Source: Kutzneria chonburiensis
GTDB lineage: Bacteria > Actinomycetota > Actinomycetes > Mycobacteriales > Pseudonocardiaceae
NCBI RefSeq assembly: GCF_028622115.1
Contig: NZ_CP097263.1
Location: forward strand, 4,464,001 to 4,528,000
Direction of reading: 5' to 3'
Length of the DNA stretch: 64,000 nucleotides
Below the pieces are notes generated by a model, which was not told where the DNA came from, searched no databases, and was given only the letters and a program-made list of their open reading frames with translations. This document shows positions 32,947 through 51,103 of this stretch, one piece after another; the first letter of the stretch is position 1; every line of letters begins with the position of its first letter. The position numbers and the translations under genes were made by a program.

Positions 32947-33836
32947 GTGGTCGACACGCCTGCGCGGCCGAGTTGGACTACACCCCTGCCACCGCAGCCC
33001 ACCCCTGCCGGCCACGACGTGGTGGCCATACACCGGAAGGCCGGCACCGAGAACTTCACGGTCGCCTCGCTCCTGCTGCCGCCACGGATCCGCCGGCGGC
33101 TGCTGTCCATCTACGCCTTCGCCCGGCTGGTCGACGACATCGGCGACGAGGCCACCGGTGACCGCAACGCCCTGCTGGACAAGGTCGACCGGGACATCGA
33201 CCGCATCTACGCCGGCTACGTCGCGACCGACCCGCTGTGGGCCGATCTGACCGTCACCGTGCACGAGTGCGGCATCCCGCGTACCCCCTCGACCGTTTGG
33301 TGCAGGCCAACCGCCGCGACCAACAGGTCAAGCGCTATCGCGACTTCACCGACCTGCTCGGCTACTGCGAGCTGTCGGCCAATCCGGTGGGACACCTGGT
33401 GCTGCACGTGTTCGACGCGATGACGCCGGAACGGGCCGCGTTGTCGGACAAGGTGTGTTCGGCCCTCCAGGTGCTGGAGCACCTCCAGGATGTGGCCGAG
33501 GACCACCGCGCCGGGCGGATCTACCTGCCGGCCGAAGACCTGGAGCGATTCGGCGTCAAGGAAGCGGATCTGGCCGCCACCAAGGCGAATCGGGAGGTGC
33601 GGGCGCTGATCGCGTTCGAGACGCAGCGCACGTTGCGGCTGCTGGACGAGGGGGCGGCGATCGTGGGCACGCTGAGCGGACTGGCCCGGCTGGCCGTCGC
33701 CGGTTACGTCGCGGGCGGGCGGGCCACCGCCGCCGCCATCGTCAACGCCGGTTTCGACGTGCTGACAACCACACCACGACCACGTAAATCCCGCACGGCG
33801 GCCGAACTGGTGCGCTCGCTCGGCGGTGGCCGGTGA
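32947..33836 (+). pseudogene. hpnC: Squalene synthase HpnC, frameshifted
   Basis: In the three-enzyme HpnCDE route, HpnC converts presqualene diphosphate to hydroxysqualene. The best start is GTG 32947 with GGAGG six bases upstream. Visible: RLVDDIGDEA (first aspartate-rich motif) and, after the break, LEHLQDVAEDHRAGRIYLPAEDL. The frame is lost at 33282-33283: adding one T (CGTTAC for CGTAC) restores GIPRYPLDRLVQANRRDQQ and gives about 296 aa. The gene heads a fully coupled hopanoid operon with otherwise intact members, which favours a sequencing error. The 292-bp upstream gap presumably holds the operon promoter; I could not pick one with confidence. Confidence 0.82.
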
Positions 33837-34705: not shown

Positions 34706-36027
34706 CCGCGCGGGTGGTTGTCGTGGGCGGCGGCTTGGCCGGCCTCACCGCCGCCTGCGAACTGGCCGACCGGGGCCTGGCTGTGACGTTGCTGGAGGCC
34801 CGCGCCCGTCTCGGCGGTGTGACGTTCTCCTTCAACCGCGGCGATCTCGTCGTCGACAACGGGCAGCACGTGCTGCTGCGCTGCTACACCGCTTACCTCG
34901 ACTTCCTGCGGAAGATCGGCGTTGCTCACCACATCGACATGCAGCCACGGATGCACATCCCGGTGCAGGGCGTCGACGGCACGCCGGGTTCCCTGTCCCG
35001 CACGGCTTTGCCGGCGCCGCTGCACCTGCTCGGCTCGCTGGCCACGTACAAGCTGCTGTCCCCGGCCGACCGGCTGCGGGCGGCGCGGGCGGTGCCCGCC
35101 ATGCGGCGGCTGAATCCGGCCGATCCGCGTCTTGACGAGCAGAGTCTCGGCGACTGGCTGCGCGCGCACGGGCAGAACGACGCCACGATTGCCGCCTTGT
35201 GGAACCTGATCACCGTGGCCGCCTTGAACTGTGACGCCGACGAGGCGTCGTTGGCCTTGGCGGCCAAGGTGTTCCGCACCGGCCTGCTGGACCGCAGCGA
35301 GAACTGCGACATCGGCGTGCCGGCGGTGCCGCTGTCCGAGCTGCACGGCGAGCCGGCCATGGCGTATCTCCAGGCCCACGGGGCCCAGGTCCGCCTGCAC
35401 GCCCCGGTGCAGGAGATTCGCCGTGACGACAACGGTTTCGAGGTCGTGACCGGCGAGGACACCATCGTCGCCGACGCGGTCGTGGTGGCCACCGCCGCCG
35501 ACGCCGCGGCCCGGCTGCTGCCCGACGTCGTCACCGACGACCTCGGCCACTCGCCGATCTTCAACGTGCACGTGGTCTTCCCGCGCCGCGTCACCGACCT
35601 GCCGTTCGTGGCGGTGGTCGGCTCGCCGGTGCAGTGGGCGTTCGACCGGACCGCGGTGTCGGGGCTGACCGAGGGCCAGTACCTGGCCGTGTCGGTGTCG
35701 GCCGCGGGCGACTGGATCGACCTGCCCGTGCCGCGGCTGCGGGAGCTGTTCCTGCCGGAGATCAGCCGGGTCCTGCCGGGCGCCGCCGGGCAGCACCCCA
35801 CCGATTTTTTCGTCACCAGGGAGCGGACGGCCACCTTCCGGCAGCAGCCGGGCAGTGGTCGCAGGCGCGCCGCCCAGCGGACCGGCACGCCCGGTCTGGT
35901 GCTGGCTGGGGCGTGGACCGCGACGGGGTGGCCAGACACAATGGAGGGTGCCGTGCGCAGCGGACAGAACGCGGCCAGGTTGTTGTCGGAGCAGCTCCCC
36001 GCCCCGGTGAGCGAGGTGGCCCGATGA
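34702..36027 (+). CDS. hpnE: Hydroxysqualene dehydroxylase HpnE
   Basis: 441-aa FAD-dependent amine-oxidase-fold enzyme that reduces hydroxysqualene to squalene. An N-terminal dinucleotide motif VVVVGGGLAGLTAACEL and the following LLEARARLGG bind FAD; the C-terminal GLVLAGAWTATGWPDTMEGAV is the typical second FAD contact. GTG 34702 overlaps hpnD by 4 bp; the longer open frame upstream is hpnD read out of frame. Confidence 0.92.
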   Translation: MTARVVVVGGGLAGLTAACELADRGLAVTLLEARARLGGVTFSFNRGDLVVDNGQHVLLRCYTAYLDFLRKIGVAHHIDMQPRMHIPVQGVDGTPGSLSRTALPAPLHLLGSLATYKLLSPADRLRAARAVPAMRRLNPADPRLDEQSLGDWLRAHGQNDATIAALWNLITVAALNCDADEASLALAAKVFRTGLLDRSENCDIGVPAVPLSELHGEPAMAYLQAHGAQVRLHAPVQEIRRDDNGFEVVTGEDTIVADAVVVATAADAAARLLPDVVTDDLGHSPIFNVHVVFPRRVTDLPFVAVVGSPVQWAFDRTAVSGLTEGQYLAVSVSAAGDWIDLPVPRLRELFLPEISRVLPGAAGQHPTDFFVTRERTATFRQQPGSGRRRAAQRTGTPGLVLAGAWTATGWPDTMEGAVRSGQNAARLLSEQLPAPVSEVAR

Positions 36028-37031
36028 CCTCGACGCTGCCCCGCCCCGTCACCACCGCCGCCGACCTGGTGCAGCCGGCCATGCGGCGCGCCGTCGACAC
36101 CCTCAACCCGTCCGTGCGGCACGTGGTGAGCTACCACCTCGGCTGGCTCGACCCGGACGGCAAACCGGTGAACGGCAGCGGCGGCAAGGCTTTGCGGCCC
36201 GCGCTGGCCCTGCTGTCGGCCCAGGCCGCCGGCGGCACGATCGAGCAGGGCGTGCCCGGCGCGGTGGCCGTGCAGTTCGTGCACGACTTCTCGCTGCTGC
36301 ACGACGACGTCATGGACGGTGACATCGAGCGACGCCACCGGCCGACGGCGTGGAAGCTTTTCGGTGTGCCGGCGGCCATTCTGGCCGGCGACGCGCTGCT
36401 GACGCTGGCCGTCGAGGTGCTCCAGCCGGCGGCGTCTCCGGCCGCCATCGACAGTGTGACGCTGGCCGTGCAGGACCTGATCGCCGGGCAGAGCGCCGAC
36501 CTGGAGTTCGAGCGCCGCCGCGACGTGACGCTGGTCGAGTGCATCGAGATGGCCAACGGCAAGACCAGCGCGCTGATGCGCTGCGCCGCGTCGATCGGCG
36601 CCATCCTGGCCGGCGCGCCGCCCGAGCGCGTAGACCTGTTGGCGCGCTTCGGCATGCACCTCGGGCTGGCCTTCCAGCTGGTCGACGACCTGCTGGGGAT
36701 CTGGGGCGCGCCCGAGGTCACCGGCAAGGCGGTGCTCGCGGATCTCAAGGTACGCAAGAAGTCCCTGCCGGTCGTCGCCGCCTTGACGTCCGGCACCGCG
36801 GCCGGCGACGAGCTCGCGGCGCGCTATCTCGTCGAGGGCACCCCGGCCGACGAGGAGCTGCCCGAGTTCGCCCGGCTCATCGAGCAGGCCGGCGGCCTGG
36901 CCTGGGCCGAGGCCGAGGCCGACCGGCAGGTCCGCGCGGCCGGCGAGAACCTGGACGCGGTCGGCGCCCCTGCTGATGTTCGGGAGGCTCTGTGGCAGAT
37001 CACGCACTTCGTGACGGAGCGCGATCGGTGA
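36024..37031 (+). CDS. Polyprenyl (farnesyl) diphosphate synthase
   Basis: 335-aa trans-prenyltransferase. Substrate Asp motifs are DDVMD at residues 94-98 (first, of the DDxxD type) and DDLLG at 221-225 (second); KALRP near residue 54 binds isopentenyl diphosphate. Within the hopanoid operon it is expected to make farnesyl diphosphate for HpnD. ATGA overlap with hpnE and GTGA overlap with shc. Confidence 0.9.
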   Translation: MTSTLPRPVTTAADLVQPAMRRAVDTLNPSVRHVVSYHLGWLDPDGKPVNGSGGKALRPALALLSAQAAGGTIEQGVPGAVAVQFVHDFSLLHDDVMDGDIERRHRPTAWKLFGVPAAILAGDALLTLAVEVLQPAASPAAIDSVTLAVQDLIAGQSADLEFERRRDVTLVECIEMANGKTSALMRCAASIGAILAGAPPERVDLLARFGMHLGLAFQLVDDLLGIWGAPEVTGKAVLADLKVRKKSLPVVAALTSGTAAGDELAARYLVEGTPADEELPEFARLIEQAGGLAWAEAEADRQVRAAGENLDAVGAPADVREALWQITHFVTERDR

Positions 37032-38863
37032 GTGATGTCGATCTGGCGCGGCGCAAGGCCATCGACCACCTGGTGTCCTTGCAGGACAGCGACGGCTGGT
37101 GGAAGGGCGAACTCGAGACCAACGTCACGATGGACGCCGAGGATCTGCTCATGCGGCAGTTCCTCGGCATTCGGGAACCGGTCGGCACGGCCGAGACGGC
37201 CGCGTGGATCCGTTCCCAGCAAAGGGAAGACGGCACCTGGGCCACCTTCTACGGCGGTCCCGGCGAGCTGTCGACGACCGTCGAGGCGTACACCGCGCTG
37301 AAGCTGGCCGGCGACCCGGCCGACGCCGAGCACATGGTGCGGGCCCGGCAGTGGGTGCTGGACCACGGCGGCATCGAGAAGACCCGGGTGTTCACCCGGA
37401 TCTGGCTGGCCCTGTTCGGGGAATGGTCCTGGGACCGGCTGCCGGTGCTGCCGCCGGAGATGATCCTGCTGCCCAAGTGGTTCCCGCTCAACATCTACGA
37501 CTGGGGCTGCTGGGCCCGGCAGACCGTGGTGCCGCTGACCATCGTCGGCTCGATGCGGCCGGTGCGGCCGCTGGGGATCTCGGTCGCCGAGCTGAAGACC
37601 GGCCAGCCGGCCGCGCCGCTGGCGCCGGCGCTGAGCTGGGCCGGCTTCTTCCAGCGCCTGGACAAGGTGCTGCACCTGCACTCTCGGTTGCCGGTGAAAC
37701 CGTTGCGGGAGTTCGCCATCCGCAAGGGCCTGAAGTGGATTCTGGCCCGACAGGAGGCCGACGGTGGGTGGGGCGGCATCCAGCCGCCGTGGGTGTACTC
37801 CATCCTGGCGCTGCACCTGCGCGGCTATCCGCTGGATCATCCGGTGTTGAAGAAGGCTTTTGCCGGCCTGGAGTCGTTCACCATCAAGGAGGACGGGGTC
37901 CGCCGGCTGGAGGCGTGCCAGTCCCCGGTGTGGGACACGGCGTTGGCGGTCACGGCGTTGTTGGACGCCGGCATGCCGCCGGACGATCCCGTGCTGAAGG
38001 AAGCCGGGACCTGGCTGCTGGACGAGGAAGTCACCGTGCGCGGCGACTGGGCCGTGCGCCGGCCGTCGCTGCCGCCGGGCGGGTGGGCGTTCGAGTTCGA
38101 GAACGACAACTACCCGGACGTCGACGACACCGCCGAGATCGTGTTGGCGCTGCGGCGAATGCTGCCGTCCGACGAGCCCGCGGTGCGGCGGGCCGTCGAG
38201 TGGACCATCGGCATGCAGTCGCGTGACGGCGGCTGGGCCGCGTTCGACGCCGACAACACCCGGCGGCTGGCCGAGAAGCTGCCGTTCTGCGACTTCGGGG
38301 CCGTCATCGACCCGCCGTCGGCCGACGTCACCGCGCACGTGGTGGAAATGCTGGCGCACGAGGGGCTTTCCGGGTTGCAGCCGGCGCGGCGGGGCATCAA
38401 GTGGTTGCTGGACAACCAGGAGGCCGACGGTTCGTGGTTCGGCCGCTGGGGAGCGAACCACGTGTACGGCACCGGGGCCGTGGTGCCGGCGCTGATCGCC
38501 GCCGGCCTGCCGACCGTGCACCCGGCGATCCGCCGGTCGGTGAAGTGGTTGGAGCAGCACCAGAACGCCGACGGCGGCTGGGGCGAGGACCTTCGGTCCT
38601 ATCGGGACAAGTCGTGGGTCGGCCGTGGTGATTCCACGGCGTCGCAGACCGCGTGGGCGCTGCTCGCGCTGCTGGCCGCCGGCGAACGCGGCACCGCCAC
38701 CGAGCGCGGGATCCGTTGGCTCGTCGCGACCCAGCGTGATGACGGCACGTGGGACGAGCCGCAGTTCACCGGCACCGGCTTCCCCGGCGACTTCTACATC
38801 AACTATCACCTGTATCGGCTGGTTTTTCCGTTGACCGCGCTGGGTCGGTATCTCGATGGGTGA
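37028..38863 (+). CDS. shc: Squalene-hopene cyclase
   Basis: Membrane-associated class II triterpene cyclase converting squalene to hopene. 611 aa, near the usual 630. The catalytic acid motif DVDDTA is at residues 364-369 (DxDD, with Asp366 the proton donor position), and many QW-type repeats such as QREDGTW, QEADGGWGG, QEADGSWFG, QNADGGWGE and QRDDGTWDE stabilise the alpha-barrel. Start GTG 37028, sharing GTGA with the prenyl synthase gene. Confidence 0.96.
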   Translation: MSDVDLARRKAIDHLVSLQDSDGWWKGELETNVTMDAEDLLMRQFLGIREPVGTAETAAWIRSQQREDGTWATFYGGPGELSTTVEAYTALKLAGDPADAEHMVRARQWVLDHGGIEKTRVFTRIWLALFGEWSWDRLPVLPPEMILLPKWFPLNIYDWGCWARQTVVPLTIVGSMRPVRPLGISVAELKTGQPAAPLAPALSWAGFFQRLDKVLHLHSRLPVKPLREFAIRKGLKWILARQEADGGWGGIQPPWVYSILALHLRGYPLDHPVLKKAFAGLESFTIKEDGVRRLEACQSPVWDTALAVTALLDAGMPPDDPVLKEAGTWLLDEEVTVRGDWAVRRPSLPPGGWAFEFENDNYPDVDDTAEIVLALRRMLPSDEPAVRRAVEWTIGMQSRDGGWAAFDADNTRRLAEKLPFCDFGAVIDPPSADVTAHVVEMLAHEGLSGLQPARRGIKWLLDNQEADGSWFGRWGANHVYGTGAVVPALIAAGLPTVHPAIRRSVKWLEQHQNADGGWGEDLRSYRDKSWVGRGDSTASQTAWALLALLAAGERGTATERGIRWLVATQRDDGTWDEPQFTGTGFPGDFYINYHLYRLVFPLTALGRYLDG

Positions 38864-39392
38864 TCTCGTCGTCGTCACCGCGCTGCGGATCGAGCGGTTC
38901 GCGCTGCGGCGCGGACTGGGCGACGTGCCGGTGATCGCGGTCGGGCTGGGTGTTCGGCACCCGTCCCGGCTCTCGCTGCCGCCCGGCGCCTGTCTTGTCG
39001 TCGCCGGGGTCGGCGGCGCGCTGGTCGACGGGATCGCCCCCGGCGACCTGGTCGTCGATGATCTCTCGCTGGCCATGTCGTTGCGGGCCAACGGCTTCCC
39101 CGTGCACCACGGGGAGGTCGCGCTGAGCGACCACCTGGTCGGCCCGTCGGAACGCTCGGAACTCGCACTGCACACCGGCGCGCTGGCCGTGGACATGGAG
39201 TCCGCCCGCGTGCTCGCACTCGCCGGCGACCGCCCGCACGCCGTGGTGCGCGCGATCGTCGACACGCCGTCCCGGGCACTGCTCGGGCCGGCGACCCTCG
39301 GCGGTGGCGTCGCTGCGCTGCGCCGCCTCGCCGCAATCGGCCCGGTGTTGCGACACTGGGCGGAATCGCAAGTGAAAGAGGTCCAACAGTGA
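38856..39392 (+). CDS. hpnG: Hopanoid-associated nucleosidase/phosphorylase HpnG
   Basis: 178-aa member of the purine nucleoside phosphorylase/5'-methylthioadenosine nucleosidase superfamily. In other bacteria HpnG removes adenine from adenosylhopane to give ribosylhopane. Visible: VVAGVGGALVDGIAPGDLVV and ALAVDMESARVLALAG (the VDMES substrate-binding segment of the superfamily). Shorter than most homologues (about 210-240 aa), with the N-terminal part compact. Overlaps shc by 8 bp and hpnH by 4 bp. Confidence 0.87.
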   Translation: MGDLVVVTALRIERFALRRGLGDVPVIAVGLGVRHPSRLSLPPGACLVVAGVGGALVDGIAPGDLVVDDLSLAMSLRANGFPVHHGEVALSDHLVGPSERSELALHTGALAVDMESARVLALAGDRPHAVVRAIVDTPSRALLGPATLGGGVAALRRLAAIGPVLRHWAESQVKEVQQ

Positions 39393-40399
39393 ACATGCCG
39401 TTGCACCAGAGCCTGCGGATCGCCGGCTATCTGCTCGGGCAGAAGCTGCGCCGGCGCGAGAAGTTCCCGCTCATCGTGGAGCTGGAGCCGCTGTTCGCCT
39501 GCAACCTCAAATGCGCCGGCTGCGGCAAGATCCAGCAACCGCACGACCTGCTGCGCCAGCGCATGCCGGTCGAACGCGCGGTCAACGCCATCGAGGAGTG
39601 CGGCGCCCCGATGGTCTCCATCGCCGGCGGCGAGCCGCTGATGCACCCGCAGATCGACGAGATCGTCAACGAGCTGGTGCGGCGCAAGAAGTACGTCTTC
39701 CTGTGCACCAACGCCGTGCTGCTGCGCAAGCGGATCGACAAGTTCGACTTCAAGCCGTCCAAGTACTTCGCCTTCGCCGTGCACATCGACGGGTTGAAGG
39801 AACGCCACGACCTGTCCGTCGACAAGGACGGCGTGTTCGACGAGGCCGTTGAGGCCGTGAAGGAGCTCCAGAAGCGCGGGTTCCGGGTCACCACCAACAC
39901 CACGTTCTTCAACACCGACACGCCGCAGACCGTCATCGAGGTGCTCGACTACCTCAACGACGACCTCAAGGTCAGCGAGATGATGATCTCACCGGCCTAC
40001 GCCTACGAGAAGGCGCCCGACCAGGAGCACTTCCTCGGCGTGCAGGAGACGCGGGAGCTGTTCCGCAAGGCCTTCGCCGACGGCCGGCGCAAGCGGTGGC
40101 GTCTCAACCACTCCCCGCTGTTCCTCGACTTCCTCGAGGGCAAGATCGACTTCTCGTGCACCGCGTGGGGCATTCCGTCGTATTCGCTGTTGGGGTGGCA
40201 GAAGCCGTGCTACCTGATGTCCGACGGGTACGCCAAGACGTACCGGGAGCTCATCGACGAGACCGATTGGGACGCCTACGGCCGGGGCAAGGATCCGCGC
40301 TGCGCCAACTGCATGGCGCACTGCGGCTACGAGCCCACCGCCGTGTTGGCCACGCTCGGTTCGCTCAAGCAGTCCTTGCGCGCCGCAGTCGGTCGGTGA
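39389..40399 (+). CDS. hpnH: Radical SAM hopanoid synthase HpnH (adenosylhopane synthase)
   Basis: 336-aa radical SAM enzyme that adds a 5'-deoxyadenosyl group to hopene, giving adenosylhopane. The 4Fe-4S motif is C38-NLK-C42-AG-C45 (CxxxCxxC), followed by SIAGGEPLMHP. A Cys-rich C-terminal tail (RCANCMAHCGYEP) is typical of HpnH. GTG start shared with hpnG. Last gene of the locus; its end overlaps the convergent TPR gene by 35 bp, so no room is left for hpnO or isoprenoid genes here. Confidence 0.95.
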   Translation: MNMPLHQSLRIAGYLLGQKLRRREKFPLIVELEPLFACNLKCAGCGKIQQPHDLLRQRMPVERAVNAIEECGAPMVSIAGGEPLMHPQIDEIVNELVRRKKYVFLCTNAVLLRKRIDKFDFKPSKYFAFAVHIDGLKERHDLSVDKDGVFDEAVEAVKELQKRGFRVTTNTTFFNTDTPQTVIEVLDYLNDDLKVSEMMISPAYAYEKAPDQEHFLGVQETRELFRKAFADGRRKRWRLNHSPLFLDFLEGKIDFSCTAWGIPSYSLLGWQKPCYLMSDGYAKTYRELIDETDWDAYGRGKDPRCANCMAHCGYEPTAVLATLGSLKQSLRAAVGR

Positions 40400-41372: not shown

Positions 41373-41373
41373 G

Positions 41374-42684
41374 TCAGGCCAGCCGGTGCTTCTTCAGGTA
41401 GGCCAGCAGGTCGTCGTACATGCCGCCTTCGTTGGCGAACATCGCCACGTTCCTGGCCGCCGCAAACCATGGCCCCGTAGACGGTCTGACCTCCCTCAGC
41501 GCTTCTTCCAGATCCTTCGCGCCGATCATCCTCGTCCGCCCGGTCTTCACGGAGTCCAGCAGCGCCTTCTCCGCCGCCACATCGCAGGCGTGCGCCAGAT
41601 CCGCCCCCGAGTACCCGTCCGTCTTCTTCGCCAGCTTCGCGATGTCGATCCCTCGCGCGTGCCTGTCCTTCAGGTGGTATTCCAGAATCGCTTGCCTGGC
41701 TTCGCCATCCGGCGGCAGCACCAGCAGCGTCCGATCGAACCTGCCCGGCCTCTTCAGCGCCGTGTCCACGTCCCAGGGGTGATTCGTCGCCGCCAGCACG
41801 AAGACCCCTTCGTTGCTGTCCCTGACGTCGTCCAGCTCCACCAGCAGCTGGTTCACCGTCCCCCGCATGGCGGACGACCTCAGCTGACTCCGCTTCTGCC
41901 CCAGCGCGTCCACTTCATCCAGGAACAGCACGCAGGGCGCATTCCTCCTGGCCAGCTCGAACACTTCGTGCAGGTTCCGCTCCGACTGCCCGATGTACAT
42001 GTCCAGCACATCCGACAACGTCACCGCGATGAACTTCGCCCCCAGCTCCCCCGCCACCGCCTTCGCGATGAACGTCTTCCCACACCCCGGCGGCCCGTAC
42101 AGCATCAGGCCGCCTTTCATGCCCTTCCCGTACAGCCTCCGCAGCTCCGGATTCCGCATAGGTGCCAGAAAGGCCGCTTCCAGCCTCTCTTTCACCGCTT
42201 TCAGGCCACCCACGTCTTTCAACGTGATCCGGCCTTCTTCAACGTCCAGAAACCCCAGCTGCTCTTCGGCCGCCGCCCAGTCGAACACCACTTCCCCCAC
42301 ACGTTCCGCGTTCGCGGGGTCGTGCTCTTCCCTCGGCTCCACCGCCTTCGGCTCCGGCTCCGCATTCGCCACGGACGGCTCCGCCTCTCGGGTCGGCTCC
42401 GCGTCCGACTTCAGCTCCGCCGCGCGCTCCGGCTCCGCCTCCGCTCGCAGCTCCGCTTTCGTCGGCTCGCTCCGCACCCCCGGCGTCCCCAGCGCCCGCC
42501 CCAGCACATCCCTGGCCGCTCCCGACGTCGGCTCGTACCCCAGCGCCTCCGCCGCCTGCTCCGCCGCCCCTTCGGTGTCCCCCACCACCAGCAGCAGCTC
42601 CGCCAGATGCAGCCGCAGCGTCACATCTCCCGGCACCGCCGCCACCGCCGCACGCAGACTCCGGATCAACGGCGTGTCCGACAC
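41374..42684 (-). CDS. CDC48-like AAA ATPase with N-terminal TPR-like segment
   Basis: 436 aa. Residues 1-65 look like one or two TPR-like helical pairs. Residues 71-128 are a low-complexity acidic linker rich in Ala-Glu-Pro. The AAA core follows: Walker A GPPGCGKT at 197-204, Walker B VLFLDE at 252-257, second region of homology with RPGRFDR near 312-318. Single AAA domain, so probably a hexameric unfoldase or remodeller. AGG and A/T-ending codons are unusually frequent for this window (for example AGG AGG AAT around residues 246-248). Coupled to the membrane TPR gene. Confidence 0.88.
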   Translation of the reverse strand: MSDTPLIRSLRAAVAAVPGDVTLRLHLAELLLVVGDTEGAAEQAAEALGYEPTSGAARDVLGRALGTPGVRSEPTKAELRAEAEPERAAELKSDAEPTREAEPSVANAEPEPKAVEPREEHDPANAERVGEVVFDWAAAEEQLGFLDVEEGRITLKDVGGLKAVKERLEAAFLAPMRNPELRRLYGKGMKGGLMLYGPPGCGKTFIAKAVAGELGAKFIAVTLSDVLDMYIGQSERNLHEVFELARRNAPCVLFLDEVDALGQKRSQLRSSAMRGTVNQLLVELDDVRDSNEGVFVLAATNHPWDVDTALKRPGRFDRTLLVLPPDGEARQAILEYHLKDRHARGIDIAKLAKKTDGYSGADLAHACDVAAEKALLDSVKTGRTRMIGAKDLEEALREVRPSTGPWFAAARNVAMFANEGGMYDDLLAYLKKHRLA

Positions 42685-44090: not shown

Positions 44091-44795
44091 TCAGCCGAAA
44101 CGGCGTTGGAAGACGCGGACGACGGAGGGGAGGAAGCCGTTGAGGCGGGCGGGGAAGCGGAGCCAGGAGGGGACGAAGATCTCGGGGCGGTTGTGCTCGA
44201 TGGCGGAGACGAGGGCCTCGGCGACGGTGACGGGAGGGAGGGGGCGGGGGCGGCGGCGGGTGTAAGGGGTGCCGCGGCGGTCGAAGAAGGGGGTGTCGAT
44301 GACGCCGGGGTGGACGACGGTGACGCCCATGGCGGGGACCTCCAGGCGGAGGGCGTCGGCGAAAGTGCGGAGGGCGGCCTTGGTGGCGGAATAGACGGCC
44401 TCGTCGGCTACGCCCATGGCGCCGGCGATGGAGGAGACGAGGACGATGTGCCCGCGGCGGCGGGAAATCATGCCGGGGAGGAGGGCGCGGGCGAGCTCGA
44501 GCTGGGACACGACGTTGACGGTGAAGAGCTCCGCGATACGGCCGGGGGGCATGGCGGCGAAAGGGCCGGCGTGGCCGAGGCCGGCGTTGAGGACCAGGAG
44601 GTCGACGTCGCCGGCCCAAGAGGCCAAGGCGGAAACGTCGATGGCGAGGTCGCAGGCGAAGGAGGAAGGGCCGGTGATGGTGCGGGCGGTGCGGAGAACG
44701 GTGGCGCCCTTGGCGGCGAGGACGTCGGAGGTGGCGGCGCCGATGCCGGAAGAAGCGCCGGTGACGAGGGCACGCAGGCCGGTCACGGAAGGCAT
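44091..44795 (-). CDS. Short-chain dehydrogenase/reductase
   Basis: 234-aa SDR. TGASSGIG cofactor motif near residue 13, NAGLGHAGPF (NAG motif), catalytic Ser in VSSIAGAMG and YSATK (YxxxK). After HPGVIDTPF the C-terminal part is basic and hydrophobic (TRRRPRPLPP, SWLRFPARLNGFLPSVVRVFQRRFG), as in membrane-associated SDRs that act on lipids. Lies 55 bp after the DMT transporter on the same strand, probably last gene of the glycosyltransferase-acyltransferase operon. Confidence 0.88.
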   Translation of the reverse strand: MPSVTGLRALVTGASSGIGAATSDVLAAKGATVLRTARTITGPSSFACDLAIDVSALASWAGDVDLLVLNAGLGHAGPFAAMPPGRIAELFTVNVVSQLELARALLPGMISRRRGHIVLVSSIAGAMGVADEAVYSATKAALRTFADALRLEVPAMGVTVVHPGVIDTPFFDRRGTPYTRRRPRPLPPVTVAEALVSAIEHNRPEIFVPSWLRFPARLNGFLPSVVRVFQRRFG

Positions 44796-44850: not shown

Positions 44851-45714
44851 TCACCGCTGGCATTCGGGCTCCTTGGCGGCGGTCATGGGGGCACGGCGGC
44901 TGAGGACGAAGACGCCGCCGGACAAGGCCGCAAGAGCGAGAACCTGGCCGATGACGGGGCCGACGCCGGAGCGGAGGGACTCGTCGAGCCAGAGGATGCC
45001 GATGCCGATGCCCACCAGGGGGTCGAGGATGGTGATGACGGCGAGGGCGGGGGCAAGGGCGCGCTCGGCCTGGAAGGCGTTCTGGCTCAAGAGGAAACCG
45101 ACGGGGCCGCAGACGGCGACCGCATAGATGGGCCAATGGGTGAGCATGACGAGAATGCCCTGGGACAGCTCCTCGGCGGCGAGCTTGGCGAGACCGGCGC
45201 TGACGCCGTAGAGAACGCCGGCGGCGACGGCGAGGGCGAGGGCACGGGTGTTGCCGGGGCGGCGGGCGGCGACGACGAGGCAGATGGCCAACAGGGCGAA
45301 AAGGCCGATGGCCAAAGGCAGAACGGCGCCGAGGGTCATCTCCTGGCTGTCGCCGGTGGGCTGGGCGACCAAAAGGAACGCGGCCAGGCCGAAAACGCAG
45401 AGGCCGGCGCCGAGCAGGACTATGCGGTCGAAAGAGCCGGAGAACAGGACGCCGAACAGCAAACCGGTGACGAGCAGGGGCTGGACCAGAACCAACGGGC
45501 CGGTGGTGAGGGCGACCCACTGGAGGATCACGCCGAAAGCGTTGGCGACCAAGGAAAGCAGCCACACGCGCTGCTGAGCGAGGTCGACGAGCAGCCCGGG
45601 CTGCAACGCCTCCCGCCGCCGCACCTGCTGGGTCGCCCGGTGCTGGAGGGCACTGGTCAGCCCGAAGAAGGCGGCGCCACCGACAGCGGCGGGCACGGCG
45701 ACGAGGAGATTCAT
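44851..45714 (-). CDS. DMT-superfamily membrane transporter (EamA-like)
   Basis: 287 aa with about nine to ten hydrophobic segments. Internal duplication typical of EamA/DMT proteins is suggested by the two similar halves (about 1-135 and 145-275). The cytoplasmic tail ends RRAPMTAAKEPECQR. ATGA overlap with the fused glycosyltransferase-acyltransferase gene implies coupled translation, so it may export or flip the product (inference). Confidence 0.82.
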   Translation of the reverse strand: MNLLVAVPAAVGGAAFFGLTSALQHRATQQVRRREALQPGLLVDLAQQRVWLLSLVANAFGVILQWVALTTGPLVLVQPLLVTGLLFGVLFSGSFDRIVLLGAGLCVFGLAAFLLVAQPTGDSQEMTLGAVLPLAIGLFALLAICLVVAARRPGNTRALALAVAAGVLYGVSAGLAKLAAEELSQGILVMLTHWPIYAVAVCGPVGFLLSQNAFQAERALAPALAVITILDPLVGIGIGILWLDESLRSGVGPVIGQVLALAALSGGVFVLSRRAPMTAAKEPECQR

Positions 45715-47990
45715 GGTGTCCTGCCTGAGAACTCCCTCAGCGCGTCGACCATCCGGGCGGCGAGCGGCTGGCCGTCGGCCGCCCCGCCACCGGTGACGCA
45801 CACCGTCACATACCGTCCCCAGGTCAACGCGCCCCACGCGACGGGGACACCCTCGGCGAGCGGAAGCACCGCGTAAGCGGCCTCGATCTCCGAGCCGCCC
45901 AGCGAGACCTTCCACCGCGGCCCGGGGATCACGGAAGCGATGGCGCCGAACCACCGCGACTGGTACACGAGCCGAGCCAACAATCGATGCACGGGTGGCG
46001 GCAGCAAACCGATAAGGCGCACAACGAAGTTCGCGGCCTCGGGGGCACCGGACTCGACACCCGACCTCAGGGCGTCCTGAACCAATTTCAAGCAGCGCAA
46101 CGGATCTGTCTCCTGCACGGGCAGGTCGACGGACACGGCCCCGGTCCAGTTGCCGGCGGCGCGCAGGGTGTCGGTGCCACGCAACGACCACGGGACCATC
46201 ACGCGAAGCTGATCCCCTTGGTAGGCCAGGGCAAACATGGCGAGGAGCAGCTCGGTCGGCGTCGCACCAAGAGCACGGGCCGTGGCGCGCACCTCGGCGC
46301 CGGGCAGCTTGGCCAGACCAAAGCGCCGGGTGGCGCCGAATTTCGACCCACGCGGCACGGAACCGGCGCGGGCCAACGCCTTCAGGCCACTGAACCGCAG
46401 CCGCGGCAGCTTGTGGCTGACCTGATGCCCTACGGGACTGGTCCACGCACGACCTTTGCCGTCGGTGCCACTCAACAGCCCGCGCAGCACGGCAACGCCA
46501 TCACCTAGAGCGTGGTCGAGCTTGAACAGAATGGCCGGAGTAGCACCATGAACGATCAACGCCGCGGCGGTCGCGCCGATGGGCAACGGCTCGGCGTAGA
46601 AGGTGTCCACGGCGTGCTGCAACGGCATACCGTCCACTTCGGACACCAATGCCTTGGTGTCGAGGGACTCGTCCTGCGCCCAGCGCGGCCGCCGCCACCA
46701 CGACCCAGGATCCACGTGCCCGCGGACGCCGTGCATGGTGTCCAACATCCCGGCGACGTCGGAAACGTCGACCTCACGGGACATCTCCAGAATTGCGCCG
46801 ACGTGCTGCGGCACGCGCGGCGACGCGATGTGCACGAACAGCGCGTCCTCGGCCGACAACACCCGCTCGAGTCGCTCCGGCCGAACCGAGTTCAGGGCCT
46901 GCAAACCCTCCTCGACCAGCCGCTCGTCGGCCTGCTTCAACGCCAGCCGCTCCATCTGCGCCAGTCGCGGCAGGTCCCGCACGGCCGCGGCCAGCTCGCC
47001 CTCCCGCTGGCACACCACAGCAATCCCGGCGTCCTCCATCAGCTTCGCGTTGGCCCGCCCGTGAGCCGCGATCGGACGGTGCATGAGCACCGGACGGCCG
47101 ACCGCGAGCGCCTCCAACGAGGTTGCCCCGCCGGCATTGGTCACCACGACATCGCACGCCACCATCAGCGACGCCATCCGGTCGGTCCAGCCGAGCACCC
47201 GGACCCGCGGATCGTCGCCGACGGCGGCGCGGATCCTGGCCCGCAGCCGCTCGTTGCGACCGCAGACCACCACCACAACGCCGTCCGGAGTGCCCTCGAG
47301 CAGTTCATGCACGGTGTCCTCGGACCGTCCGAAACCAAGGGAACCGCAGGCCACCAACGAGATGAACTTGTCATGGGGCAGGTCCAGCTCGGCCCGCGCG
47401 GCGCCGCGATCACCCGGTTGGAAGACCTCGTCGGCGGTCGGCGCGGAGATCGCCACCGTGGCGCCGGGCGCGCTGCGCGCGGCCACCGGCACGGCGACCT
47501 CGTGCATCACCAGGTTGAGGTCGATGCCCTGGTACACCCAGAACGGATGCGGCGCGAAGTCCGACACCCAGGCGCCGATCGGCGTCTCCAGGCCGCGATG
47601 CCGGCGCAGCCAGTCAAGGCCGGCCGTGCCCAGTGGATACGTGGACAGGATCAGGTCGGGCTGGATCTGGTCGATCCTGGCGGCCAGCCGCCGACCGGCC
47701 CATTCGCCGACGAACCGCTTCGACGCCCGGGCGAACCACCGGTAGCGCCACACCGAGTCGTAGAAGAACTCGTACAGCCAGGGCGTTTTCTCCACGTTGG
47801 TGACGTAGATCCGCCGGAAGGCGGGCCCGACCCCGCGGCCCATCACGTCCAGGGTGTCCAGCCAGTGCGTCGAGGCGTCGGGCCACAGCCGCCCGGCGGC
47901 CGCGCGCAGCGCACGGCCGGTGGCGTTGTGGCCCTCGCCCATGTCGGCGGACAGGATCAGGATCCGTCGCGGCGTCGCCGAGTCCAGCAC
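45711..47990 (-). CDS. Glycosyltransferase fused to WS/DGAT-type acyltransferase
   Basis: 759 aa with two enzymes. Residues 1-370: MGDG-synthase/MurG-like glycosyltransferase, with the N-terminal LSADMGEGHNATGRAL acceptor-side loop and the nucleotide-sugar site VVTNAGGATSLEALAVGRPV. Residues about 378-755: wax-ester-synthase/diacylglycerol-acyltransferase fold, starting SAEDALFVHIASPRVPQHVG, with DHALGDG near 490-496 in the position of the HHxxxDG catalytic motif (first His replaced by Asp; the catalytic second His kept). A lipid glycosylation plus acylation role is inferred. First gene of an operon with a DMT transporter and an SDR; divergent from the benzoylformate decarboxylase gene. Confidence 0.83.
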   Translation of the reverse strand: MLDSATPRRILILSADMGEGHNATGRALRAAAGRLWPDASTHWLDTLDVMGRGVGPAFRRIYVTNVEKTPWLYEFFYDSVWRYRWFARASKRFVGEWAGRRLAARIDQIQPDLILSTYPLGTAGLDWLRRHRGLETPIGAWVSDFAPHPFWVYQGIDLNLVMHEVAVPVAARSAPGATVAISAPTADEVFQPGDRGAARAELDLPHDKFISLVACGSLGFGRSEDTVHELLEGTPDGVVVVVCGRNERLRARIRAAVGDDPRVRVLGWTDRMASLMVACDVVVTNAGGATSLEALAVGRPVLMHRPIAAHGRANAKLMEDAGIAVVCQREGELAAAVRDLPRLAQMERLALKQADERLVEEGLQALNSVRPERLERVLSAEDALFVHIASPRVPQHVGAILEMSREVDVSDVAGMLDTMHGVRGHVDPGSWWRRPRWAQDESLDTKALVSEVDGMPLQHAVDTFYAEPLPIGATAAALIVHGATPAILFKLDHALGDGVAVLRGLLSGTDGKGRAWTSPVGHQVSHKLPRLRFSGLKALARAGSVPRGSKFGATRRFGLAKLPGAEVRATARALGATPTELLLAMFALAYQGDQLRVMVPWSLRGTDTLRAAGNWTGAVSVDLPVQETDPLRCLKLVQDALRSGVESGAPEAANFVVRLIGLLPPPVHRLLARLVYQSRWFGAIASVIPGPRWKVSLGGSEIEAAYAVLPLAEGVPVAWGALTWGRYVTVCVTGGGAADGQPLAARMVDALREFSGRTP

Positions 47991-48118: not shown

Positions 48119-49699
48119 ATGGCGACGGTGCGGCAAGTGACCAGGGATCTGCTGCGAAGCTGGGGCTGCACAACGGTGTTCGGCAATCCCGGCTCGACCG
48201 AGCTGCCGTTCCTGGCCGACTGGCCGGACGACTTCCGGTACGTGCTCGGCCTGCACGAGTCGTCGGTGGTCGCGATGGCCGACGGTTACGCCCAGTTCAG
48301 CGGCCGCCCGGCGGTGGTCAACCTGCACTCCTCCGGCGGCGTCGGTCACGGCTTGGGCAGCCTGGTCACGGCGTTCCGCAACCGGTCGCCGCTGCTGGTC
48401 ATCGCCGGTCAGCAGGCGCGGTCGCTGCTCAACGGGGAGCCGTTCCTCGGCGCCGTCGACGCGCCGGAGTTCCCGCGCCCGTACGTGAAGTGGAGCGCGC
48501 AGCCGGCGCGGGCGGCCGACGTGCCGGCGGCGCTGGCACGAGGTCTTCTTTTGTGCACTCAGCCGCCACAAGGTCCGGTGTTCGTGTCAGTCCCGGTGGA
48601 CGACTGGAACCAGCCAGGAGTTGACGTTCCGTCACGTCCGCCGGTCGCCGGCTTCGGACCGGACGCGGCGGCCATCCGGGTGATCGCGTCGGCATTGGAC
48701 ACGGCTGAGCGGCCGGCGATTGTCGTCGGGGCGTCGGTGGACGCGGACGACGCCGTCGAGGACGCCGTGGCCCTGGCCGAGCGCACCCGGGCGGCGGTGT
48801 GGGCGGCGCCGATGTCGTCCCGCTGCTCGTTTCCCGAGGACCATCCGCTGTTCGCGGGCTTCCTGCCGCCGGCCGATCGGCAGCTCCGGCACACGTTGCA
48901 GCCGTACGACTGTGTGCTGGTGATCGGGGCGCCCGCGTTCGTCTATCACGTGGAAACCCCGGCCGACGGCCCGGAACTGCCGCCGCTGCACCTCGTCCAC
49001 GACGATCCGACGGTCCTGTCGTGGGCACCGGCCGGCAGCGCGCTGTTGTCGACGCCCCGGCGGGCCATTCAGGCGCTGACCGAGCTGGTCGGGCCGTCGT
49101 CACGGCCGGCGCCTACCGTCCGTGCACGGGCTGCGGAGCCGACACCGACCATCCCGATGACCGGGGCATTTGTGCTGTCGGAGATCCGGCGGCTGCTGCC
49201 GGCCGACGCCGTCGTCGTCGAAGAGGCCCCGAGCCACCGCAACGACCTGCACGAACACCTGCCGATCACGGCCCGTGGCCGCGGCTTCTTCACCATCGCC
49301 AGCGGCGTGCTCGGCTACGGCCTGCCCGGCGCGGTCGGGGTGTCGCTGGCCGCGCCGGACCGCCCGGTCGTCGCGGTCGTCGGCGACGGCTCGGCGATGT
49401 ACGGCATCCAGGCGCTGTGGACCGCGGCCAAAGAGCACGCCTCGGTCACGTTTGTCGTGCTGGACAACGCGCAGTACGCGGCGCTGCGGTCGATGGCGGA
49501 GAGCGCGGGCGTGGCCAAGGCGCCCGGGGTGGAGCTCGGCGGACTGGATTTCTGCGCGCTCGCCGAGGGTATGGGCTGCCGGTCGCGGCTGGTGGAACGT
49601 CCGGACGAGCTCGAGGAGGCCTTGACCTCCGCCGTACGGGCGAGCGGGCCGACGGTGCTGCATGTGCGGGTCGATCCGGGGTACTCACCGCTGTACTGA
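48119..49699 (+). CDS. Benzoylformate decarboxylase-like ThDP enzyme
   Basis: 526-aa thiamine-diphosphate enzyme. FGNPGSTELPFL and LHESSVVAMADGYA (activating Glu) at the N-terminus and VNLHSSGGVGHGLGSL match benzoylformate decarboxylase, including the active-site Ser and His positions. The C-terminal ThDP/Mg motif runs from GDGSAM to the Asn in LDNAQYAA. Expected reaction: decarboxylation of a 2-oxo acid such as phenylglyoxylate; the true substrate is not fixed by sequence. No mandelate-pathway partners lie nearby. Confidence 0.88.
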   Translation: MATVRQVTRDLLRSWGCTTVFGNPGSTELPFLADWPDDFRYVLGLHESSVVAMADGYAQFSGRPAVVNLHSSGGVGHGLGSLVTAFRNRSPLLVIAGQQARSLLNGEPFLGAVDAPEFPRPYVKWSAQPARAADVPAALARGLLLCTQPPQGPVFVSVPVDDWNQPGVDVPSRPPVAGFGPDAAAIRVIASALDTAERPAIVVGASVDADDAVEDAVALAERTRAAVWAAPMSSRCSFPEDHPLFAGFLPPADRQLRHTLQPYDCVLVIGAPAFVYHVETPADGPELPPLHLVHDDPTVLSWAPAGSALLSTPRRAIQALTELVGPSSRPAPTVRARAAEPTPTIPMTGAFVLSEIRRLLPADAVVVEEAPSHRNDLHEHLPITARGRGFFTIASGVLGYGLPGAVGVSLAAPDRPVVAVVGDGSAMYGIQALWTAAKEHASVTFVVLDNAQYAALRSMAESAGVAKAPGVELGGLDFCALAEGMGCRSRLVERPDELEEALTSAVRASGPTVLHVRVDPGYSPLY

Positions 49700-49777
49700 C
49701 GGCCCGTGTTACCTTGGACGGTATCCCCGAACTGGCTGGTCAAGCGCCCGATCGTGGGCATTTCACGAAGGAGCGCA

Positions 49778-51103
49778 GTGTCGGACGCCAAGACCACCCG
49801 TGGGTTCTGGACCCGGGTCGCCGACTCTTTCCTGCCCGGCGTCACCGATGGCGCGCCGACCCTGAACGTGCCGACATGGATCCGGCGGGCAACACCGTGG
49901 GCGATCCTGGCCGTGCTGGCGTGGTTCGTGGTGTGCACGATCATCTGGCCGGTCGGCATGTGGTTCCAGATCGACCTTGAGGTCTACCGGGCCGGCGGGC
50001 TGACCGTGCTGGACGGTCGGTCGCTGTACGACCACCCGCTGGTGGCCAGCCTGATGTTCACCTACACGCCGTTCGCCGCGGTCATCTTCGCCCCGCTGGC
50101 GCTGCTGCCGCTGGGCGCGGCCGACATCGTCTACACCGTCGTGACCGTGCTGCTGCTGGTGTTCGCGGTGGCGCGGTGCTGGCGGTGGATGGGGTATCGG
50201 CGGGACCGCAACGTCATCGTCGTGGTGGCGCTGACCGCCGGGCTGGCGCTGATGTTCGAGCCGGTGCGGACCACGTTGTACCTGGGGCAGATCAACGTCC
50301 TGCTGCTGGCCATCGTCGTCGCCGACCTGCTGCGCATCCGCAGGTCCAACTGGATGGGCGTCGGTGTCGGCATCGCCGCCGGCATCAAGCTGACGCCGCT
50401 GATCTTCATCCCGTACCTGTTGTTGACCAGGCAGTTCAAGGCGGCCGGGGTGGCCGTCGCGAGCTTCGTCGGCACCATCGCGCTCGGCTTCGTGTTCAAG
50501 CCGAGGGACGCCTACAACTACTGGTTCGGGCAGAAGTTCGGCGAGGTCGCCCGAGTGGGTGACGTCTGGTCGACCGGCAACCAGTCGCTGCGGGGCTTCC
50601 TGGCCCGGCTCGTGTCGCCGCCCGAGGCCACCCAGACCGCGTGGATCGTGCTGGCGGCGCTGATCGGCGGGCTCGGCATCTGGGCCGCCGTCGTGGCGCA
50701 CAGGCGGGGCGAGGACCTGCTCGCCGTCGCCCTCGTCGGCATGTGCTCCACGGCTGTGTCGCCGTACTCGTGGTCGCACCACTGGGTGTGGTTCGTGCCG
50801 CTCGCCGTGTTCGCCCTGCACCGGGCCCTGGCCACCCGGCTGGCGTCCATGTGGGTGCTGACCGCGTACGTCTACATCAGCGTGTTCGCCTGGCCCGTCG
50901 GCTTCCCCGTGCACGACCCGGGCGCGCGGGCCCCCGCCGGCATCTGGATGATCAACTGGCCCGGCGAGATCGTGACCCGCAACTGGTACCTGATCGCCTA
51001 CCTGGTCACCGCCGTGTTCACGCTCGTGCACCTACGCCGTTCGAAGGTTGTCACGTCAACCGACGGGGTGATCGACAACCGGGATCGGGTGCCCAGCCGC
51101 TAG
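49778..51103 (+). CDS. GT87-family polyprenyl-phosphate-dependent mannosyltransferase
   Basis: 441-aa membrane glycosyltransferase (DUF2029/GT87, PimE-like) with about ten membrane helices. After the first helix the loop has QIDLEVYRAGG, whose Asp is in the position of the catalytic Asp of GT-C enzymes. GQINVLLLAIVVADL and GIKLTPLIFIPYLL are characteristic of the family. Likely adds mannose to a lipid or glycan on the outer face of the membrane. GTG 49778 has AAGGAG six bases upstream; an earlier in-frame GTG at 49706 has no ribosome site. Confidence 0.87.
   Translation: MSDAKTTRGFWTRVADSFLPGVTDGAPTLNVPTWIRRATPWAILAVLAWFVVCTIIWPVGMWFQIDLEVYRAGGLTVLDGRSLYDHPLVASLMFTYTPFAAVIFAPLALLPLGAADIVYTVVTVLLLVFAVARCWRWMGYRRDRNVIVVVALTAGLALMFEPVRTTLYLGQINVLLLAIVVADLLRIRRSNWMGVGVGIAAGIKLTPLIFIPYLLLTRQFKAAGVAVASFVGTIALGFVFKPRDAYNYWFGQKFGEVARVGDVWSTGNQSLRGFLARLVSPPEATQTAWIVLAALIGGLGIWAAVVAHRRGEDLLAVALVGMCSTAVSPYSWSHHWVWFVPLAVFALHRALATRLASMWVLTAYVYISVFAWPVGFPVHDPGARAPAGIWMINWPGEIVTRNWYLIAYLVTAVFTLVHLRRSKVVTSTDGVIDNRDRVPSR

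What the first reader, a model, noticed from the sequence alone, without database searches (positions are those of the whole stretch)
45711..47990. One-chain glycosyltransferase plus WS/DGAT acyltransferase in a lipid-type operon
Residues 1-370 are a MGDG-synthase/MurG-like glycosyltransferase and residues 378-755 a wax-ester-synthase/DGAT-like acyltransferase (seen). The acyltransferase motif reads DHALGDG instead of HHxxxDG, keeping the second His. The gene is coupled by ATGA to a DMT transporter and followed by a membrane-type SDR. Together this looks like a dedicated pathway that glycosylates and acylates a lipid and then moves it across the membrane, which I do not recognise as a described system.
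Basis: partly seen in the sequence, partly recalled or inferred. Interest (0 to 1): 0.68.

Follow-up and report, generated by a model that had tools for sequence, protein, structure and literature searches.

The report
Hopanoid-linked glycosyl- and acyltransferase fusion operon
A soil actinomycete carries one protein that combines a sugar-adding and a fatty-acid-adding enzyme, in an operon that in many members of its bacterial family sits beside the genes for hopanoids (bacterial sterol-like lipids), so it probably decorates hopanoids, and its partner reductase is a candidate for a missing step of that pathway.

Summary
On the minus strand, 45711-47990 encodes a 759-aa MGDG/UgtP/MurG-type glycosyltransferase (GT) fused to a shortened WS/DGAT-type acyltransferase (AT), ATGA-coupled to a DMT transporter and followed by a short-chain reductase (SDR). 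DHxxxDG is a local variant: 40 of 42 aligned proteins keep HHxxxDG.

The operon converges on hopanoid genes (squalene-hopene cyclase, HpnG, HpnH). In 150 family genomes the fusion or its AT occurs in 53 of 59 with HpnH and 1 of 91 without, within 10 kb of HpnH in 47 of 54. A genome of another family (G361) has the same arrangement. The SDR reaches further: 35 of 39 HpnH-positive and 0 of 14 HpnH-negative genomes tested; the three Streptomyces-like genomes without it carry an HpnO-like aminotransferase.

Best reading: a hopanoid-tailoring operon. SDR reduces ribosylhopane to bacteriohopanetetrol (enzyme unassigned, PMC12583986), GT glycosylates it, AT acylates it, DMT moves it. Domains and linkage are shown; substrates, order and product are inferred. 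Against: G057 has fusion and transporter without hopanoid genes; GT+DMT pairs occur without hopanoids; Streptomyces reportedly makes bacteriohopanetetrol without this SDR.

The parts
45711..47990 (-). GT-AT fusion, 759 aa
   Evidence: GT-AT fusions in 48 of 150 family genomes
46875..47990 (-). N-terminal MGDG-synthase/UgtP/MurG-type glycosyltransferase domain (residues 1-372); motifs SADMGEGHN and NAGGATSLEA
   Evidence: Pfam PF06925, PF04101; best solved relatives UgtP-type 9wde and MGD1 4wyi; motifs
45714..46865 (-). C-terminal WS/DGAT-type acyltransferase domain (residues 376-759), LDHALGDG motif from residue 491
   Evidence: PF06974 and TIGR02946 matches; best solved relatives 6chj and 7nxg
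44851..45714 (-). DMT-family transporter, 287 aa, start overlaps the fusion stop (ATGA)
   Evidence: NF038012 83.7 bits, cut-off 50; sequence
44091..44795 (-). Classical SDR, 234 aa; proposed ribosylhopane reductase
   Evidence: PF00106; co-occurrence with HpnH; motifs
39389..40399 (+). HpnH, adenosylhopane synthase (radical SAM)
   Evidence: TIGR03470 526 bits, cut-off 225
38856..39392 (+). HpnG-like nucleosidase/phosphorylase, 178 aa
   Evidence: TIGR03468 44.6 bits, below its cut-off 187; position between SHC and HpnH
36992..38863 (+). Squalene-hopene cyclase
   Evidence: TIGR01507 769 bits, cut-off 431
36024..37031 (+). Polyprenyl synthase of the hopanoid cluster
   Evidence: tblastn with relatives; a relative has PF00348
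34651..36027 (+). HpnE-like FAD oxidoreductase (start approximate)
   Evidence: tblastn; a relative has PF01593
33833..34705 (+). HpnD-like squalene/phytoene synthase, 290 aa (the name HpnD is by position)
   Evidence: PF00494 234 bits
32947..33821 (+). HpnC-like squalene/phytoene synthase, matched in two reading frames in this assembly
   Evidence: a relative has PF00494

Best explanation
The operon is the tailoring arm of C35-hopanoid biosynthesis in Pseudonocardiaceae. HpnH and HpnG (the pathway as given in PMC12583986) turn diploptene (hopene) into adenosylhopane and ribosylhopane. The SDR then reduces the open (aldehyde) form of ribosylhopane to bacteriohopanetetrol (BHT), probably with NADPH. 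The GT half transfers a sugar from a nucleotide-sugar to a BHT hydroxyl. The AT half transfers an acyl group, presumably from acyl-CoA, to the sugar or to another side-chain hydroxyl, using the second His of HHxxxDG. The DMT transporter carries or flips the product across the membrane. Fusing GT and AT would pass the glycoside from one active site to the other at the membrane face. Shown here: gene content, domains, motifs, and close linkage and co-occurrence with hopanoid genes. Inferred: substrates, sugar, acyl chain, order of steps and direction of transport.
For: (1) Linkage: in 38 loci (37 genomes; 17 genera plus G057 apart), families within 9 kb of the fusion/AT, by groups of 18: SDR 17, HpnH 16, DMT 16, SHC 15, HpnE 13, polyprenyl synthase 13, HpnG 9 (plus HpnG-IspH 6), a small membrane protein of the same region 9; the best other family reaches 4. 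(2) Co-occurrence in 150 genomes (recount): 53 both, 6 HpnH only, 1 fusion only, 90 neither; by genus 17/1/0/28 (Fisher p 1.6e-32 and 1e-11, relatedness ignored). Within genus g42, G075 and G098 have both, G042 and G118 neither. Median gap to HpnH 2.2 kb in the 47 genomes within 10 kb. (3) G361, another family, has fusion-DMT-SDR convergent with HpnH, HpnG-IspH, SHC, polyprenyl synthase and HpnE, and is the only one of 17 genomes of its family with the fusion at E 1e-30. (4) SDR orthologues in 35 of 39 HpnH+ and 0 of 14 HpnH- genomes tested; scores in the loci bimodal (>=250 against <=125 bits); SDR adjoining and convergent with HpnH in six of the 23 HpnH+ genomes outside the family tested (positions). 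(5) An HpnO-like aminotransferase, by the literature the other consumer of ribosylhopane, is in 9 of 40 HpnH+ genomes, including the three Streptomyces-like ones without SDR; it is contiguous with SDR and HpnH in G160. (6) In three of the six g26 genomes (those whose region was read), the hopanoid region has a WS/DGAT acyltransferase fused to a PAP2 domain that looks separately recruited. (7) MGDG-type GTs with a NodB-type deacetylase lie beside hopanoid genes in f15 and f19. (8) Acylated and glycosylated hopanoids are known chemistry (passages of PMC8537080). A hopanoid cluster was predicted in Kutzneria albida (passage of PMC4210621).
Against: No biochemistry. G057 (93% complete draft) has fusion and DMT but neither HpnH, SHC nor SDR. 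G042 and G118 have a GT (41% identical) plus DMT pair without hopanoid genes, so GT+DMT is not hopanoid-specific in general. The closest solved GT relatives are named for diacylglycerol substrates. Streptomyces-like genomes lack the SDR, yet BHT appears to be reported from S. coelicolor (passage of PMC10301674), so another reductase may exist; G247 is HpnH+ with neither SDR nor HpnO found. In seven of the 19 SDR+ genomes of other families SDR and HpnH are on different contigs. g24 keeps AT and SDR without a complete GT. Genomes of one family are not independent.
Confidence: 0.6

Rival explanations
1. The fusion makes an acylated glycosyl-diacylglycerol (or other glycolipid) for the cell envelope; its place beside the hopanoid genes reflects shared regulation or ancestry, and only the SDR belongs to hopanoids.
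For: Closest characterised GT relatives are UgtP and MGD1. GT+DMT pairs occur without hopanoid genes in G042 and G118. G057 keeps fusion and DMT without SDR or hopanoid genes.
Against: 53 of 54 fusion/AT genomes have HpnH; co-presence and co-absence inside g42; same cluster in another family; another WS/DGAT-type AT in the hopanoid region of three g26 genomes.
Confidence: 0.22
2. GT and AT act on different acceptors in the same locus: the AT esterifies the hopanoid side chain directly, and the GT makes a separate glycoside carried by the DMT; the fusion only co-expresses and co-localises them.
For: g24 keeps AT and SDR while the complete GT and an orthologue-level DMT are gone; four g26 genomes keep GT+DMT away from the hopanoid locus without the fused AT.
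Against: GT-AT fusions in 48 genomes of 16 genera; single-chain fusions often couple steps (inference).
Confidence: 0.25
3. The SDR is hopanoid-specific but does another redox step (for example on a side-chain hydroxyl); BHT comes from a different reductase.
For: Three Streptomyces-like genomes lack this SDR, although BHT appears to be reported from S. coelicolor (PMC10301674 passage). SDR family membership fixes no substrate.
Against: Frequent position next to HpnH, and an HpnO-like gene present in all three SDR-lacking Streptomyces-like genomes tested.
Confidence: 0.35

Closest known systems
WS/DGAT acyltransferases (wax ester synthase / acyl-CoA:diacylglycerol acyltransferase; 6chj, 7nxg)
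   Same: Related by profile; HHxxxDG, GN and PG-type motifs kept in most members
   Different: Shorter (about 385 aa in the window), fused behind a GT, far below the TIGR02946 cut-off, linked to hopanoid genes
MGDG synthase / UgtP (processive diacylglycerol glucosyltransferase) / MurG
   Same: MGDG_synth plus GT28 C-terminal domains; best solved relatives
   Different: Below the UgtP equivalog cut-off (132 of 500 bits); genomic context is hopanoid, not diacylglycerol
HpnI-HpnK-HpnJ route (BHT N-acetylglucosamine, deacetylation, BHT cyclitol ether; as described in PMC12583986, passages)
   Same: A glycosyltransferase acting on BHT; f15 and f19 loci pair a GT with a deacetylase
   Different: Here the GT is MGDG/MurG-type and fused to an AT; HpnI family membership was not tested
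HpnO branch (ribosylhopane to aminobacteriohopanetriol; PMC12583986 passage)
   Same: Acts at the same branch point that is proposed for the SDR
   Different: Transamination instead of reduction; an HpnO-like gene was not found in the 15 Pseudonocardiaceae genomes tested
N-acylglucosaminyl-BHT of Alicyclobacillus (chemistry, cited in PMC8537080, passage)
   Same: A hopanoid bearing both sugar and acyl group
   Different: Different phylum; the product of the present operon is unknown
Staphyloxanthin pathway (CrtQ glycosyltransferase, CrtO acyltransferase; recalled, no call)
   Same: A C30 isoprenoid glycosylated and then acylated
   Different: Separate proteins, carotenoid backbone, other enzyme families

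Membership tests
WS/DGAT acyltransferases | HHxxxDG catalytic motif | tested here: met
   Family: 40 of 42 aligned proteins HHxxxDG; the window itself and G087 read DHxxxDG, keeping second His, Asp, Gly
WS/DGAT acyltransferases | Pfam WS_DGAT_cat and WS_DGAT_C above cut-off | tested here: inconclusive
   Window: C-terminal domain met (44.5/20.7), catalytic domain just below (21.8/23.6); both met in L039, L066, L067, L057, L093
TIGR02946 wax ester/triacylglycerol synthase subfamily | Score above curated cut-off 309.95 | tested here: not met
   101.8 bits window, 146.9 L041, 168.4 L081, 214.5 L093
MGDG synthase / GT28-type glycosyltransferases | PF06925 plus PF04101 above cut-off | tested here: met
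   42.4/25 and 37.6/22; in the L059 fusion PF04101 is below cut-off (19.7/22)
UgtP (NF010135 equivalog) | Score above cut-off 500 | tested here: not met
   132.4 bits
Hopanoid biosynthesis locus | Operon adjacent to, and co-occurring with, SHC/HpnG/HpnH | tested here: met
   exception G057
Hopanoid biosynthesis locus | Enzymes act on hopanoids | not testable with these tools
   needs mutants, lipid analysis or assays
Classical SDR | TGxxxGIG and Ser-Tyr-Lys with YxxxK | tested here: met
   T12 G13, G17 I18 G19, S122, Y135, K139 invariant in 11 rows
Ribosylhopane reductase (unassigned enzyme) | NAD(P)H-dependent reduction of ribosylhopane to BHT | not testable with these tools
   only genomic association here
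DMT transporters NF038012 | Score above cut-off 50 | tested here: met
   83.7 window, 94.8 L041
HpnI | HpnI model match | not tested
   no HpnI model was searched by name; none appears among the six NCBIfam matches of the fusion

The most novel reading that the evidence does not exclude
This is an undescribed terminal branch of hopanoid biosynthesis. The hopanoid-linked SDR is the missing ribosylhopane-to-bacteriohopanetetrol reductase of most hopanoid-making actinomycetes. In Pseudonocardiaceae a single bifunctional chain then makes an acylated hopanoid glycoside, which a DMT protein flips or exports.
Probability: 0.4. Interest if true: 0.82.

Novelty: new variant of a known kind. Interest (0 to 1): 0.68.

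Why it matters
Hopanoids are major bacterial membrane lipids and geological biomarkers, and the enzyme that makes bacteriohopanetetrol, a very common functionalised hopanoid (recalled), is still unassigned according to a 2025 paper (PMC12583986, passages). The finding gives that step a concrete candidate gene in actinomycetes, and it predicts a class of acylated hopanoid glycosides together with the gene, strains and natural partial-loss genera needed to test it. It also adds a GT-AT fusion as a one-chain solution for decorating a triterpenoid.

Tried and rejected
No fold search was made on it and nothing rests on it.

Considered and rejected: that the fusion is a local accident (48 of 150 genomes have one); that the DH motif marks a new enzyme class (2 of 42 proteins); that the divergent benzoylformate decarboxylase (48119-49699) or the GT87 gene (49706-51103) belongs to the system (families 36 and 16 occur near the fusion only in genus g1 loci). 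A first idea, that the SDR is lost together with the AT in g26, was wrong: an orthologue lies about 10 kb from SHC there in five of the six genomes and on another contig in G130.

Limits of the work. Alignment A2 used wrong coordinates for L041 and was discarded. In the GT tree the g24 remnant has a very long branch, several long branches meet and the root is a midpoint, so only the broad placement is used; all trees are quick trees. Rows dropped before the motif count: L068 and L085, duplicates of L038 and L034. The contingency and distance counts use handles and coordinates typed from the printed tables and were recomputed; 68 and 71 genomes without a match are counted but not listed there. 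HpnH was counted at E 1e-60; one of the 59 (G102) is a fragment below the family's cut-off. In the SDR searches only part of the candidates was scored (at most 131 or 86 per genome), so misses are less certain than hits. The name HpnO-like rests on position after HpnH in G167 and on aminotransferase family matches, not on a model of that name. My gene calls are a simple script; it missed the SDR in some loci (L093, L105, L109) where the genome search shows it.

Literature: ten searches, of which only listings were seen. Passages were read of PMC8537080, PMC12583986, PMC4210621 and PMC10301674. No listing pointed to a GT-AT fusion or to an SDR in hopanoid tailoring, in that library only.
Full report
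What is there. The frame at 45711-47990 is on the minus strand and encodes 759 aa. Residues 1-372 are an MGDG-synthase/UgtP/MurG-type glycosyltransferase; residues 376-759 are a WS/DGAT-type acyltransferase. By profile the nearest solved structures are a UgtP-type enzyme (9wde, E 3.8e-45) and chloroplast MGD1 (4wyi) for the first half, and 6chj (E 1.2e-35) and 7nxg for the second. The stop codon overlaps the start of a DMT transporter as ATGA, and a classical SDR follows after 55 bases. The motif LDHALGDG is a local variant: among 42 aligned proteins, window included, 40 read HHxxxDG, and only the window and its near relative G087 read DHxxxDG. The GT motifs SAxxGEGHNA and NAGGATxLEA are kept in most of the 38 fusions of that table; L042, L051, L059, L060, L062, L072, L081 and L092 deviate in one or both.

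Where it comes from. The host is a Kutzneria-like member of Pseudonocardiaceae (10.41 Mb, one contig), judged from 89-92% identity over the full protein to three named Kutzneria records.

The surroundings change the reading. In the window the operon points at a plus-strand hopanoid cluster: polyprenyl synthase 36024-37031, squalene-hopene cyclase 36992-38863, an HpnG-like gene, and HpnH 39389-40399 (526 bits, cut-off 225). Upstream lie HpnE-like, HpnD-like (PF00494) and HpnC-like genes. In 38 loci (37 genomes) of the fusion or its AT (17 genera plus G057 apart), the families found within 9 kb are SDR in 17 of 18 groups, HpnH 16, DMT 16, SHC 15, HpnE 13, polyprenyl synthase 13, HpnG 9, a small membrane protein (cluster 8) of the same region 9, and HpnG-IspH 6. 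The best family outside these reaches 4. The other flank varies from genus to genus.

Co-occurrence. Two searches of the same 150 family genomes (recount) give fusion or AT in 54 (48 GT-AT fusions, counting G004 and G138; six ATs in genus g24) and HpnH in 59. Both: 53. HpnH only: six, all g26. Fusion only: G057. Neither: 90. HpnH is within 10 kb in 47 of 54, with a median gap of 2.2 kb. The seven exceptions are G087 and G142 (17 and 23 kb), G035 (124 kb, but HpnG and SHC next to the operon), G048, G102 and G138 (HpnH on another contig; SHC 6 kb away in G102; HpnE and polyprenyl synthase on the G138 contig) and G057 (no HpnH or SHC). By genus the table is 17/1/0/28. Fisher values (1.6e-32 and 1e-11) ignore relatedness. 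Inside genus g42, two of the genomes sampled have both and two have neither. In 394 genomes of the class, three match at E 1e-50: the window's own; G361, a full fusion in another family with the same convergent arrangement, and the only one of 17 genomes of that family with the fusion at E 1e-30; and G234, a GT-only gene with DMT and a NodB-type deacetylase beside a hopanoid cluster. So most of the 92 HpnH-positive genomes of the class sample do not have the fusion: it is a speciality of this family.

Natural dissection. In the six g24 genomes the match covers only the AT. A remnant of the GT N-domain is recognisable in two of the four g24 loci read (L066, L067), one other being partly masked (L056). 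Orthologue-level DMT is gone (best 143 bits, against 339 or more for orthologues), while the SDR stays in all six. In Sciscionella (G040) the DMT is not in the operon but lies on the far side of the hopanoid genes, about 12 kb away. In four g26 genomes the GT survives alone with a DMT, away from the hopanoid locus. In the three g26 genomes whose region was read (G113, G026, G146), the hopanoid region carries a WS/DGAT acyltransferase fused to a PAP2 domain. On a quick, midpoint-rooted tree that AT groups with two other AT-like genes of the window's own genome rather than with the fusions (SH-aLRT 97), whereas the g24 ATs nest inside the fusion clade. This suggests that GT loss is derived in g24, and that hopanoid loci of this family acquired WS/DGAT acyltransferases more than once.

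The SDR. A profile of 11 SDRs finds orthologues at 255 bits or more in 16 of 16 HpnH-positive genomes and in 0 of 5 HpnH-negative ones (best 164), then at 221 bits or more in 19 of 23 HpnH-positive genomes of other families and in 0 of 9 HpnH-negative ones (best 164). Together 35 of 39 against 0 of 14 (Fisher 1.3e-9). The four misses are three Streptomyces-like genomes (f21; that name is inference from size and abundance) and G247. Of the 19, six have the SDR adjoining and convergent with HpnH (G471, G235, G165, G310, G390, G160), one adjoining on the same strand (G339), one within 2 kb (G195), four at 10-15 kb (G205, G249, G187, G166), of which three were seen to have it at the HpnC end of the cluster, and seven on another contig. 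Scores in the loci are bimodal (54 at 250 or more, 13 at 125 or less), and the 32 orthologues in the tree fall on one side of a branch (support 93) from three other SDRs. An HpnO-like aminotransferase (E 1e-100) is found in 9 of 40 HpnH-positive genomes: all three Streptomyces-like ones, and six that also have the SDR. None of the 15 Pseudonocardiaceae tested has it. In G160 HpnO-like gene, SDR and HpnH are contiguous, and in G162 SDR and HpnO-like gene are neighbours. Of the 40, only G247 has neither. PMC12583986 (passages) states that HpnO converts ribosylhopane to aminobacteriohopanetriol and that the enzyme making BHT from it has not been established. An NAD(P)H-dependent SDR at this place is a natural candidate.

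Mechanism, with marks. Shown: domains, motifs, linkage, co-occurrence. From established knowledge (recalled): MGDG/UgtP/MurG enzymes use nucleotide sugars on lipid acceptors; WS/DGAT enzymes transfer acyl from acyl-CoA to alcohols through the HHxxxDG His; SDRs reduce carbonyls with NAD(P)H. Inferred: ribosylhopane to BHT (SDR), BHT glycoside (GT), acylated glycoside (AT), movement by the DMT. Whether the acyl group sits on the sugar or the side chain is open; g24, with AT but no complete GT, suggests that the side chain can serve.

Against. G057 has the fusion without hopanoid genes or SDR, in a 93% complete draft. GT+DMT pairs exist without hopanoids (G042, G118). BHT appears to be reported from S. 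coelicolor (PMC10301674 passage), while the three Streptomyces-like genomes tested lack the SDR; another passage (PMC8537080) names aminobacteriohopanetriol as its product. None of this is biochemical proof.

Known chemistry. Passages of PMC8537080 mention N-acylglucosaminyl-BHT in Alicyclobacillus, N-acyl aminotriols, glycosides of BHT and acylated side chains. The product class is therefore plausible; the enzyme arrangement and the gene assignment were not found in the searches listed under Tried and rejected.

Verdict. Its substrate is most likely a hopanoid. The arrangement is a new variant of hopanoid tailoring, and the most useful lead is the SDR.

Noticed in passing
window 32947-33821 (+): The HpnC-like squalene synthase gene is matched in two different reading frames, overlapping near 33276-33288, while a near relative (L086) has it in one frame; it may be a real lesion or an assembly error.
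   Followed up: partly
L044:4224-5735 and relatives (cluster 9): In several actinomycete hopanoid clusters HpnG is fused to IspH (LytB), joining a side-chain enzyme with an isoprenoid-precursor enzyme.
   Followed up: partly
L093:8783-10792, L094:2894-4894, L096:12300-14309: A PAP2-superfamily domain fused to a WS/DGAT acyltransferase lies in the hopanoid region of three g26 genomes.
   Followed up: partly
L082:3357-5230, L099:2-1881, L101:16939-19000, L102:16911-18999: An MGDG-type glycosyltransferase next to a NodB-type polysaccharide deacetylase beside hopanoid genes in families f15 and f19; possibly another glucosaminyl-hopanoid route.
   Followed up: partly
L063:7224-9631 (own genome, 6973000-6992000 region): The window's genome has a second, 566-aa MGDG-type glycosyltransferase beside a NodB-type deacetylase, with no hopanoid genes recognised in the stretch fetched.
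   Followed up: no
L062:11467-12168, L097:3277-4104 (cluster 8): A small membrane protein (weak DUF3159/IspA matches, below cut-off) lies between SDR and HpnH or next to the DMT, within 9 kb of the fusion in nine genera; function unknown.
   Followed up: no
L059:8727-12247, L060:7768-11165, L062:8031-11470: A second, divergently transcribed GT gene adjoins the fusion in g5 and g42, which might add a second sugar.
   Followed up: no
window 40365-42684 (-): A TPR protein and an AAA+ ATPase lie between the SDR and HpnH; related genes recur in several Kutzneria loci.
   Followed up: no
G017:C27 (L089) and several f20 genomes: Second copies of HpnH; in G017 no hopanoid cluster was recognised around it in the stretch read.
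   Followed up: no
L088:11263-12477, L043:10531-11823: PucR-type regulators lie next to HpnC or next to the fusion in several genera and may control the locus.
   Followed up: no
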